The notes under the pieces are model-generated. The model did no database searches and was not told the origin of the DNA. It worked only from the letters and a program-made list of their open reading frames with translations. Shown in pieces: positions 30,212 to 32,453 of a DNA stretch of 64,000 bases. The stretch is from Phyllobacterium myrsinacearum (lineage in GTDB: Bacteria; Pseudomonadota; Alphaproteobacteria; Rhizobiales; Rhizobiaceae), in the NCBI RefSeq assembly GCF_014138285.1, contig NZ_JACGXN010000009.1, positions 62,001 to 126,000 on the forward strand, written 5' to 3'. How positions within the stretch are numbered: the stretch's first letter is position 1; the number at the start of each line of letters is the position of its first letter. A program made the translations under genes and the position numbers.

Positions 30212-31320
30212 GGTTCTACCTCCTTCAGCAGACTCTTTTTCTGAAGACGCCGTTCCATGCGGATGACGAACACCGCGAGCAGCAGCACCAGCACACCGAC
30301 AGTGAGGAAGAAGCCCGCCGTGCCAATCAGAGAGCCGATGGTTTCAAAGGCGAGGTAGAGAACTTCAACACAGAACACGCCGTAGGCGCTCCACCGTACG
30401 GCTAGATTGCGATGACCGGATAGAGCCAGTCCCGCAATTGCCAGCACAAGAATGGCAAAGCCGATCACCACTTCACGGGAATGGCCGATCACGTGATCAT
30501 CAAACTGGAAGAGCATCAGCGCCAGGTGGGCAGCAAGAAAGCCATATGCGCCAAGAGCAATACTCCATCCGGTAACACGGTCCAGCATTGGGGATTTCAG
30601 CGCATCGACGAGAAACAGGCCAAGTCCAACCACAAGTGCCAGCCACACCATGCCGCTGGAACTGAGGTCGAAATGAACGACAGCGACAAAGACGAGCAGC
30701 AATACTGCCAGAAAATGCCGTGCCACATCTGCTTTGGTGTACCAGATCAGGCCCGCCACCACTACGGCAAGGATCGGAACAATCCAGAGATAGCTCAGAC
30801 GCCACGCTGTTTCCGGTTCCAGACTTGCCACAAGATAGAATGCTGTGATGACAACGCTCGCAGCCACAAGCGCAGGTGAGCGCAACAGCAACGCGGCCAC
30901 GACCGTTCCGCCAGTCCACAGAAGAGCAGCAGACGTCACATCGCCGGATAGGTGATACATCTGCCCGATAAGTGCGATGCCGGCACCAAAGCCTATTGCA
31001 GCTATCAGATAGAGCGCTTCGCTGAAAACCTTGTCACCCCGGCTCGCCCGCCAGGCGCCACCGAGATAGCCACCCCATAAAACAACGAAGATCAATCCAA
31101 CGCGAACCAGCCTCGGCATTGCCTCCCAGTTGGCAGCGATCAGGGAGAGCAGCGCGGTACCGAGCAGAATGGCACCGAGGATGGCCAGCACATTGCCCAG
31201 ACCGAAACTGAAGCCTTGCCCGGCAATATCTTTGCGTAAGCGCTCCGCCGTGGCTTCGTCGATCAGCCCGTCATGCTGCCACCGTGCAATGTGCTTGCGC
31301 AGTGTGAAGCCGATTATCAT
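30208..31320 (-). CDS. DUF2157 multi-pass membrane protein
   Basis: The 370 aa protein starts with a short cytosolic helix region (MIIGFTLRKHIARWQHDGLIDEATAERL), the DUF2157 hallmark, followed by about eleven hydrophobic spans. Its role is not established. It is typically paired with a GDYXXLXY gene, as here. I use the ATG at 31320, preceded by AGGAG; an upstream in-frame start adds 31 residues without family support. If the downstream partner is truly broken, this gene may be drifting too, but its own frame is intact. Confidence 0.83.
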   Translation of the reverse strand: MIIGFTLRKHIARWQHDGLIDEATAERLRKDIAGQGFSFGLGNVLAILGAILLGTALLSLIAANWEAMPRLVRVGLIFVVLWGGYLGGAWRASRGDKVFSEALYLIAAIGFGAGIALIGQMYHLSGDVTSAALLWTGGTVVAALLLRSPALVAASVVITAFYLVASLEPETAWRLSYLWIVPILAVVVAGLIWYTKADVARHFLAVLLLVFVAVVHFDLSSSGMVWLALVVGLGLFLVDALKSPMLDRVTGWSIALGAYGFLAAHLALMLFQFDDHVIGHSREVVIGFAILVLAIAGLALSGHRNLAVRWSAYGVFCVEVLYLAFETIGSLIGTAGFFLTVGVLVLLLAVFVIRMERRLQKKSLLKEVEP

Positions 31321-31588
31321 GCATTCCGCTCCTGATTCGAGATCTAAGACTAGGGTCCTGCCCCTCTTAACGCCAGCCGTAATGAGAACGCAATTACAGC
31401 CGTATTCGGGCAAAAATCATAAAGATGACAATTGTGCGGCGCAGCAAATCAAATCGATTAATGATGCAATGCAACATCTGCATAGCTGACCTGCAAACTT
31501 GGCTCTGCACATTCGACGAGGCATCCACTATCTTCAGCTCAACGATCAAGAGTGATCAACGAAACAAACGAACCGAATGGTGATTGAA

Positions 31589-31735
31589 ATGAACCTTATC
31601 CGCTCTTACAGCAACTGGCGCCGTTATCGTGACACGGTTTCCGAGCTGAACCGTCTGTCGACCCGCGAACTGAACGACCTGGGCATTTCCCGCTCGGACA
31701 TCCCGTTCGTCGCCAAGAAGTCCGCAGTACGCTAA
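31589..31735 (+). CDS. DUF1127 small Arg-rich protein
   Basis: The 48 aa product MNLIRSYSNWRRYRDTV... contains the DUF1127 pattern: SYSNWRRYRDTVSELNRLSTRELNDLGISRSDIPFVAKK. These small basic proteins act in RNA turnover or in phosphate, carbon and stress control in alphaproteobacteria (for example CcaF1 of Rhodobacter, which binds RNA). An in-frame ATG at 31577 would add four residues. It is followed at 20 bp by three CCTCCTCCC hairpins, the same gene-RNA arrangement as CcaF1-CcsR, so the gene and hairpins are probably one transcript. Confidence 0.85.
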   Translation: MNLIRSYSNWRRYRDTVSELNRLSTRELNDLGISRSDIPFVAKKSAVR

Positions 31736-31754
31736 TCGCATAACAGAATATCGC

Positions 31755-31783
31755 CGGGGCTCATCCTCCTCCCAGAGCCTCCG
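31755..31783 (+). ncRNA. Cuckoo/CcsR-type hairpin RNA, copy 1
   Basis: The stem GGCTC/GAGCC (31758-31762, 31775-31779) can be extended outward by a G-T and a G-C pair. Its 12-nt loop carries CCTCCTCCC at 31765-31773. It begins 20 bp after the DUF1127 stop. The motif matches the 3' anti-Shine-Dalgarno-like element of the alpha-r14/cuckoo sRNA family. This copy has the weakest stem of the three. Confidence 0.72.
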
Positions 31784-31788
31784 CGATC

Positions 31789-31821
31789 AAAGACCGGCAC
31801 TCCTCCTCCCAGCCGGTCTTT
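31789..31821 (+). ncRNA. Cuckoo/CcsR-type hairpin RNA, copy 2
   Basis: AAAGACCGGC (31789-31798) and GCCGGTCTTT (31812-31821) form a perfect 10-bp stem. The 13-nt loop shows CCTCCTCCC at 31802-31810. It is separated from copy 1 by about 9 nt and from copy 3 by 9 nt, so the copies are probably processed from one precursor. Confidence 0.8.
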
Positions 31822-31830
31822 ACAAAACGG

Positions 31831-31869
31831 CACCCACCGCACCTCCTCCCGCGGTGGGTGTTGTTGTTT
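31831..31869 (+). ncRNA. Cuckoo/CcsR-type hairpin RNA, copy 3 with terminator tail
   Basis: CACCCACCGC (31831-31840) and GCGGTGGGTG (31851-31860) form a perfect 10-bp stem. The 10-nt loop is A plus CCTCCTCCC (31842-31850). TTGTTGTTT follows, so this last hairpin doubles as the intrinsic terminator of the DUF1127 transcript. It ends six bases before the stop of the convergent gene at 31875. Confidence 0.8.
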
Positions 31870-31874
31870 CCGGC

Positions 31875-32453
31875 CTATCTCTGGCTGTTGAAACCCCGCT
31901 CTTTCCATTCTGCTAAACGCATGACATCGGGCTTTCCGCCCGCAGGTTCGTACCAGGAATCGACTGCCCAAAGCGTCCCTGATGCGTCGCGGAGCACCGC
32001 TGCAAAATGCGGATAACGACCGTCAAAGAAGCTCCCGCGCGATTCACGGCGGCCGACGCTGTGATGCCGGAGCATGCCTGCACTTTGCAGATAGCGCAGA
32101 AAATGATCCGTATTGGTGGATTCATCCACACAGTCCATCTGACCTTTTTCACGTGCGGCGCCGAACGCCATCTTTGGCCGGTCTGCCACCCCAATGACCT
32201 GTGTCGAACGCAGTTCGAATACCTGCACGGCGCGCCGGATCGCGGCGCGTTCCGCTTCCGCCGATTTGCGTCCACTTGCCATGATACCGGCAATCCGGCT
32301 GCGATCGCCTGATGTCAACGTCACCGGTGTCTGGAAATAGCAGCCATAGCCATGGCAGACGCGGAAGCTCTGCGCCCCGGCGGAAGAAGTCCATCCCAAC
32401 AGTGCTGCAAAAACCAGCAGCGGCAGATAAAGCCTTGAGCCGGATATTTTCAT
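31875..32453 (-). CDS. Hypothetical periplasmic protein
   Basis: The 192 aa product has a Sec signal peptide ending SAGA-Q (about residue 27). The mature part contains RVCHGYGCYFQTPVTLTSGD, MDCVDESTNTDHFLRYLQ and WAVDSWYEPAGGKPDV, blocks conserved in an uncharacterised rhizobial family as far as I can recall. Cysteines C33, C38 and one near 106 may pair. No function is assigned. It is convergent with the cuckoo RNA array, so its mRNA 3' end may overlap that transcript. Confidence 0.72.
   Translation of the reverse strand: MKISGSRLYLPLLVFAALLGWTSSAGAQSFRVCHGYGCYFQTPVTLTSGDRSRIAGIMASGRKSAEAERAAIRRAVQVFELRSTQVIGVADRPKMAFGAAREKGQMDCVDESTNTDHFLRYLQSAGMLRHHSVGRRESRGSFFDGRYPHFAAVLRDASGTLWAVDSWYEPAGGKPDVMRLAEWKERGFNSQR

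What the first reader, a model, noticed from the sequence alone, without database searches (positions are those of the whole stretch)
31589..31869. DUF1127 gene followed by three tandem CCTCCTCCC hairpin RNAs (CcaF1-CcsR-like unit)
Seen directly: a 48-codon DUF1127 gene, then three hairpins whose loops each carry the identical nonamer CCTCCTCCC (31765-31773, 31802-31810, 31842-31850). Two of them have perfect 10-bp stems and the last has a terminator tail. Established knowledge: cuckoo RNAs (alpha-r14, and CcsR1-4 of Rhodobacter) carry CCUCCUCCC in a hairpin loop, and the CcsR RNAs lie downstream of the DUF1127 gene ccaF1. Inference: one precursor is made and cut into the hairpin RNAs, which bind Shine-Dalgarno regions of many mRNAs, possibly under stress. 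Different stems with an identical loop motif argue for selection on the loop.
Basis: partly seen in the sequence, partly recalled or inferred. Interest (0 to 1): 0.85.

Follow-up and report, generated by a model that had tools for sequence, protein, structure and literature searches.

The report
DUF1127 gene with cuckoo RNA array
A soil bacterium seems to make a tiny protein and a three-hairpin RNA that probably blocks ribosome binding from one transcript; this pair is a known kind, but it starts at a promoter that resembles those of a known stress and symbiosis regulator, and similar RNA genes with that promoter were also seen in phage DNA.

Summary
Window 31746-31866 (+) is the Rfam sRNA ar14 (114.6 bits, gathering 58.8), 10 nt after a 48-aa DUF1127 gene (60.9 bits). 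This is the known 'CIN1' kind (DUF1127 plus cuckoo RNA), here in Phyllobacterium. It scores as ar14, not CcsR1 (31.3, gathering 65.3), and no RpoH-like promoter was found. What I add: the unit starts at an LsrB/VtlR-type promoter. The published box lies at 31480-31492, with a -10 element exactly 48 nt after its start. Both hold in 20 of 20 Phyllobacterium orthologues and 20 of 20 of a second DUF1127-ar14 locus, and in 40 of 109 family ar14 loci against 0 of 325 control stretches. LsrB activation of one stand-alone ar14 RNA (NfeR1) and a conserved promoter stretch of its homologues are already in print; extension to DUF1127-ar14 units is inference without expression data. Side finding: 40 of 54 viral contigs with the triple motif carry such an array with this promoter geometry beside a phage helicase gene.

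The parts
31480..31494 (+). LsrB/VtlR-type box GCATAGCTGACCTGC; the published consensus GCAT-N3-TG-N3-T matches 31480-31492
   Evidence: kept in 20/20 orthologues. By itself the consensus is weak: 18 in the window, 13.4 expected
31505..31510 (+). weak -35 element CTGCAC
   Evidence: CTTGAC-N17-CTATAT with 3 mismatches in all
31528..31533 (+). -10 element CTATCT, exactly 48 nt after the start of the box; predicted transcription start near 31540
   Evidence: start site inferred, not measured
31589..31735 (+). DUF1127 gene, 48 aa
   Evidence: PF06568 60.9 bits; start codon context conserved
31736..31749 (+). linker between stop codon and hairpin 1; candidate cleavage region (inference); GAATATCG at 31746-31753 is invariant in 19 sequences
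31746..31866 (+). ar14 (cuckoo) sRNA
   Evidence: RF02344, 114.6 bits, gathering 58.8
31750..31787 (+). hairpin 1, loop nonamer 31765-31773
31789..31821 (+). hairpin 2, loop nonamer 31802-31810
31826..31865 (+). hairpin 3, loop nonamer 31842-31850, terminator-like with a weak U-tract to 31872
   Evidence: not listed by the terminator scan

Best explanation
One sigma-70-type transcript starts near 31540 when the LysR-type regulator LsrB (= VtlR) binds the box at about -60 to -48. It encodes the 48-aa DUF1127 protein and carries an ar14 RNA as its 3' UTR. The ar14 part is released as a ~120-nt RNA, probably by one cut in the linker. Its three CCUCCUCCC loops pair with GGAGG-type Shine-Dalgarno regions and lower translation of many mRNAs, transporters among them. 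Shown here: anatomy, family, conservation, stem pairing kept through change, promoter geometry. Shown in relatives by others: LsrB activation of the stand-alone ar14 RNA NfeR1, silencing by its loops, VtlR activation of DUF1127-type genes. Inferred: that LsrB acts at this promoter, that the two parts are co-transcribed and separated, and the targets.
For: Rfam ar14 far above gathering. Box plus YTATNT at exactly +48 in 20/20 orthologues (class A) and 20/20 second DUF1127-ar14 loci (class B) of 20 Phyllobacterium genomes; background 0 of 356 stretches. Family: published box within 400 nt upstream in 47 of 109 ar14 loci (23 of 51 with DUF1127, 24 of 58 without); reversed motif 3/109, region further upstream 2/109. 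A de novo count puts the same words first, GCTGnnnTGCA 48 against 2. Strict box + -10 at +48: 40/109; loose, +47 to +49: 61/109; controls 0/325 for both. A scan of the named-genome collection for half-box + -10 + loop gave 35 loci: in all 35 the gap is 32 (31-33 allowed), the unasked GCA half is present and DUF1127 lies between. The same genome has an LTTR gene between a trxB-like gene end and abcR, the order described for vtlR (PMC7486931, passages). The published box position in PabcR1 is -61 to -49 (PMC8844928, passage), as predicted here.
Against: No expression, start-site or binding data for this organism. The consensus alone is not rare (18 in the window, 13.4 expected). 34 of 109 family loci have no generic box within 450 nt, and 10 of 109 control regions have one. 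In this genus classes C and D pass the -10 test at +46 to +50 in only 5 of 20 and 5 of 14, class E (phasin) in 0 of 15. abcR of this genome has the box at -62, but no YTATNT at +48. In A. tumefaciens a genome search with the VtlR consensus found only one further site (PMC7486931, section 10), and only one of six ar14 copies of S. meliloti was reliably seen on northern blots (PMC7143759, passage). LsrB control of AbcR1 in S. meliloti is disputed: no effect in PMC7486931, clear effect in PMC8844928 (passages). Another LTTR could read the same palindrome. The LTTR here was placed by domains and gene order only; no NCBIfam model shown passes its cut-off.
Confidence: 0.75

Rival explanations
1. A ccaF1-CcsR-type unit: RpoH-driven, cut by RNase E with help of the DUF1127 protein into several single-hairpin RNAs.
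For: DUF1127 followed by CCUCCUCCC hairpins, as in Rhodobacter (PMC10253847, passages); the CcsR1 model matches weakly (31.3 bits); processed forms reported for SmelA075 (PMC3927594, section 2.7).
Against: Below the CcsR1 gathering score of 65.3; no RpoH-like element by a simple pattern; an LsrB-type promoter is conserved instead; NfeR1 of the same family is a 115-nt RNA (PMC8844928, passage).
Confidence: 0.12
2. The hairpins are mainly a 3' stability and termination element of the DUF1127 mRNA, with no action in trans.
For: Hairpin 3 is terminator-like; the array follows the stop codon directly.
Against: Stems drift while nonamers stay; 58 of 109 family ar14 loci have no DUF1127-like frame scoring 80 or more upstream; NfeR1 acts in trans (PMC10746234, passages).
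Confidence: 0.05
3. The promoter box is real, but a LysR-type regulator other than LsrB reads it.
For: The palindrome fits the general LTTR T-N11-A kind; which half matches the consensus differs between classes.
Against: It fits the consensus published for LsrB/VtlR, at the same distance from the start site (PMC7486931, PMC8844928, PMC10746234; passages).
Confidence: 0.12

Closest known systems
NfeR1 (Smr14C2), ar14 family, Sinorhizobium meliloti
   Same: Three hairpins with identical aSD loops; LsrB box upstream of a sigma-70 promoter; an alignment of homologue promoters with a conserved upstream stretch is in print (PMC10746234, passages)
   Different: Described as a stand-alone sRNA; has an NtrC site, not tested here
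CIN1 locus: short DUF1127 gene with CcsR-like cuckoo RNAs (Reinkensmeier and Giegerich 2015; known here only through PMC10253847, passage)
   Same: DUF1127 gene associated with cuckoo RNA
   Different: No LsrB promoter is mentioned in the passage seen; the paper itself is not held
ccaF1-CcsR1-4, Rhodobacter sphaeroides
   Same: DUF1127 gene followed by CCUCCUCCC hairpin RNAs in one transcript
   Different: RpoHI/HII promoter, four RNAs, another Rfam model; protein of 71 aa
Atu1667 / BAB1_0914 / BAB2_0512, VtlR-activated small-protein genes
   Same: VtlR activates them through the same box; the VtlR-activated small proteins of Brucella are DUF1127 proteins (PMC12595884, PMC7486931; passages)
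   Different: Whether an ar14 RNA follows these very genes was not tested: those genomes were not reached
AbcR1 (ar15)
   Same: LsrB-activated aSD sRNA; in this genome ar15 lies next to the LTTR gene, with the box at -62
   Different: Another family and structure; binds Hfq (PMC8844928, passage)

Membership tests
ar14 / cuckoo RNA (RF02344) | Covariance-model score above gathering | tested here: met
   114.6 against 58.8 bits, model 1-123
ar14 / cuckoo RNA (RF02344) | Three hairpins, CCUCCUCCC in each loop, variable stems | tested here: met
ar14 / cuckoo RNA (RF02344) | Silencing of mRNAs through the loops | not testable with these tools
   Shown for NfeR1 by others (PMC10746234, PMC7143759; passages)
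CIN1 locus | Short DUF1127 gene directly upstream on the same strand | tested here: met
   PF06568 60.9 bits, ends 10 nt before ar14
CIN1 locus | Co-transcription of gene and RNA | not testable with these tools
   No RNA data; the conserved promoter lies upstream of the gene
CcsR1 (RF02791) | Score above gathering 65.3 | tested here: not met
   31.3 bits
CcsR1 (RF02791) | RpoHI/RpoHII promoter | tested here: inconclusive
   No match to an RpoH-like pattern, recalled from memory, in 31300-31600
LsrB/VtlR regulon | GCAT-N3-TG-N3-T at about -61 to -49 | tested here: met
   31480-31492, 48 nt before CTATCT; start site predicted
LsrB/VtlR regulon | Binding by LsrB and loss of RNA without lsrB | not testable with these tools
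   No wet data

The most novel reading that the evidence does not exclude
Across Rhizobiaceae many unlinked ar14/cuckoo RNA genes, with or without a DUF1127 gene, form one LsrB/VtlR regulon built on a promoter of fixed geometry. The VtlR-activated 'small protein' genes would then be dual transcripts whose phenotypes may come partly from a 3' anti-SD RNA. Phages have captured such an RNA gene with the host-type promoter intact and keep it at one place beside their helicase gene, so that a host stress regulator would drive a phage-borne translation silencer.
Probability: 0.5. Interest if true: 0.75.

Novelty: new member of a known kind. Interest (0 to 1): 0.45.

Why it matters
The unit itself is a known kind. 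The promoter joins three literatures: cuckoo RNAs, VtlR/LsrB targets and DUF1127 proteins. It makes a question that the VtlR paper left open testable, namely whether Atu1667 acts as protein or as RNA (PMC7486931, passage). If right, phenotypes of DUF1127 mutants need re-reading with the 3' RNA kept. The phage copies would be a case of a phage carrying a host-controlled anti-Shine-Dalgarno RNA.

Tried and rejected
CcsR membership: rejected by score. RpoH-like promoter: not found. The E. coli-type promoter scan found none in 31300-32000. The published box alone as evidence: rejected, too frequent; only conservation and spacing were used. Targets inside the window: three listings, two of them one site; of no use. 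ar14 in six cultured rhizobial phages with a related helicase: no match at E up to 1 in the 5.7-kb stretches searched. Phages collection with the window ar14 and with a phage array: only short weak matches. Plasmid copies of the phage segment: none. Prophages: 19 of 297 family genomes have a related helicase at E up to 1e-100; none of the 19 loci shows two or more loops.

Rows dropped or capped: the match list was cut by the tool. From its listed rows and I took 109 loci, mostly leaving out further ar14 copies in the same tandem array; at least one (L205) is still a second copy. The class lists hold 89 of the 115 loci; they were drawn up by hand, A and B with one locus for each of 20 genomes, C to E incomplete. 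One search had 19 of the 20 class-A sequences (L063 left out). In one search the loci of minus-strand matches were not yet turned round; one search mended that. In one search the -10 test for the Ti plasmid locus was read at a wrong offset and is not used.

Paper searches for a printed link of LsrB/VtlR to DUF1127-cuckoo units or of phages to cuckoo RNAs. They gave NfeR1-LsrB and VtlR with DUF1127 genes; in the passages seen I did not meet the joint claim. Only open-licence papers are held; the cuckoo, CcaF1 and CcsR papers PMC4615179, PMC8034643 and PMC4402390 are not, and I saw no supplements.

Full report
What is there. At 31589-31735 (+) the window encodes a 48-aa DUF1127 protein (PF06568, 60.9 bits). 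It ends 10 nt before an ar14 sRNA at 31746-31866 (RF02344, 114.6 bits, gathering 58.8). The RNA folds into three hairpins. The CcsR1 model scores below its gathering score. The genus is taken as Phyllobacterium: contigs of seven genomes called 'same genus' (G003, G004, G005, G009, G011, G015, G019) have exactly the lengths of named Phyllobacterium records. That is a length match, not a name on the window.

Selection. Across 109 ar14 loci of the family, 290 hairpins pair with their own arm (mean stem 9.62) far better than with arms of others (3.49, sd 0.10 over 200 swaps); 78 of the 109 loci carry three exact nonamers. In 19 orthologues 98.6% of the cells of the structure pair; the covariation score exceeds all 500 shuffles, while two of the five measures do not stand out (4 pairs changed on both sides, reached by 32 of 500; 14 further pair types, reached by 493 of 500) and helix 3 hardly varies.

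Other copies. The genome has five ar14 matches above gathering. The window copy (class A) and that on contig 15 (class B) follow DUF1127 genes; classes C and D stand alone; class E follows a phasin gene (Phasin_2 61.9 bits, TIGR01985 117.2). A sixth, weak ar14 match (30.2 bits) coincides with an ar15/AbcR match (58.7 bits). Of 39 genomes in the relatives sample, the window's own included, 31 have a match at E up to 0.001 and 24 one above gathering. Of 81 genomes of the family sample, 73 have one at E up to 1e-9.

Promoter. The published LsrB/VtlR box is GCAT-N3-TG-N3-T (PMC7486931, passages and section 10). It occurs at 31480-31492. Alone it means little: 18 in the window, 13.4 expected. But box plus YTATNT exactly at +48 is present in 20 of 20 class A and 20 of 20 class B loci; with +46 to +50 allowed, classes C, D and E give 5 of 20, 5 of 14 and 0 of 15; background stretches give 0 of 356. 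A looser box is found in 20 of 20 C, 14 of 14 D and 3 of 15 E loci. In 109 family loci the published box lies within 400 nt upstream in 47, against 3 for the reversed motif and 2 further upstream. An unguided count of gapped words puts GCTGnnnTGCA first, 48 loci against 2. The strict arrangement is found in 40 of 109, the loose one in 61 of 109, both in 0 of 325 control stretches. The generic box occurs in 75 of 109 upstream regions and 10 of 109 controls. Where the DUF1127 gene ends less than 100 nt before ar14, 29 of 36 have the box upstream of the gene and 7 have none; with a longer gap, 7 of 15 have it upstream of the gene, 6 between gene and RNA, 2 nowhere. So some neighbours are separate units. 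A scan of the named-genome collection for half-box, -10 and first loop gave 35 loci, all with gap 32, all with the other GCA half, all with DUF1127 between. By my own rough estimate, with equal base frequencies, one or two would be expected by chance. 34 carry Rhizobiales names; one is labelled Bacillus subtilis, and its DNA is about 93-94% identical to Pseudochrobactrum over 6.3 kb.

Regulator. Next to abcR the genome has a LysR-type regulator gene (HTH_1 88.1, LysR_substrate 120.3 bits) and the end of a trxB-like gene, the order described for vtlR in Agrobacterium (PMC7486931, passages). abcR has the box at -62 but no YTATNT at +48. In S. meliloti LsrB binds and activates the ar14 RNA NfeR1, and an earlier alignment of NfeR1 homologue promoters from Sinorhizobium, Rhizobium, Agrobacterium and Brucella had shown a conserved 29-nt upstream stretch (PMC10746234, passages). 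LsrB also activates AbcR1 with the box at -61 to -49 (PMC8844928, passages), though PMC7486931 saw no such effect in another strain (passage). In Agrobacterium and Brucella, VtlR activates small-protein genes that in Brucella are DUF1127 genes (PMC7486931, PMC12595884; passages). What the DUF1127 protein does is open: RNA binding (CcaF1) or contact with PhoR (PMC12501420, passages).

Reading. The simplest account is an LsrB-activated transcript that carries a small protein and, in its 3' UTR, a three-loop anti-Shine-Dalgarno RNA. LsrB action, co-transcription, processing and targets are inferred for this organism. What I did not meet in print, in the searches named under Tried and rejected, is the LsrB-type promoter upstream of DUF1127-ar14 units, its exact +48 spacing over the family, and the phage copies.

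Side finding in phages. The triple-nonamer pattern hits 54 viral contigs. In 40 of them a box lies 74 nt before the first loop, with a TAT-type -10 at +48. In all 40 the array lies 119-268 nt from the nearest end of a helicase match on the other strand. In the two contigs looked at most closely the neighbours are exonuclease, beta-clamp and methyltransferase genes, with a Cas4-type exonuclease in L364 and a primase in L377. Twelve of the 54 contigs were scanned with Rfam, chosen by hand; all 12 have ar14 above gathering, seven of them among the 40. Of the 14 contigs without that box, five are among those ar14 matches, and several of the rest look like simple or coding repeats. DNA relatives of the two arrays tested, at E up to 1e-20, occur in 7 of 394 family genomes, all of one unnamed genus. 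At the 10 distinct places with an array a box with -10 at +48 precedes it; of two more arrays close by on the other strand, one has it and one has not. One of the 10 places (L422) matches the whole 361-nt phage query, 80% identical, so it is probably a prophage copy. In a related prophage, about 90% identical in DNA, the place holds a 131-aa secreted-protein-like frame instead (no family search made). Six cultured rhizobial phages with a related helicase gave no ar14 match in the stretch searched. Capture from a host is the likely direction, but no tree was built and the hosts were not named.

Noticed in passing
L336-L389 (viral contigs), e.g. L364:4477-4596: ar14 array with LsrB-type promoter geometry beside a phage helicase gene in 40 of 54 viral contigs with the triple motif; a unit on the opposite strand, like a moron.
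   Followed up: partly
   Followed up: partly
L067, between DUF1127 and ar14: One Phyllobacterium relative (G014) has about 265 extra bp between the DUF1127 gene and ar14, with inverted ends, like a small mobile element; the box and +48 spacing upstream are kept.
   Followed up: no
L005:1501-1616: The fifth ar14 copy follows a phasin gene on the same strand and lacks the LsrB-type promoter.
   Followed up: partly
L335 (Agrobacterium fabrum pTiAg57): A Ti plasmid carries a DUF1127 gene, then a terminator-like hairpin, then a box-like sequence and a cuckoo array, so probably separate units.
   Followed up: partly
L310, JAHREI010000005.1: Record labelled Bacillus subtilis holds Pseudochrobactrum-like DNA.
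   Followed up: partly
31432-31447: A second palindromic stretch, TTGTGCG-N-CGCA-N-CAA, upstream of the box is well conserved in the orthologues; a further regulator site is possible.
   Followed up: no
L351 and family genomes such as G075:C10 and G107:C59: Two or three ar14 units in a row, so about six to nine loops in one place.
   Followed up: no
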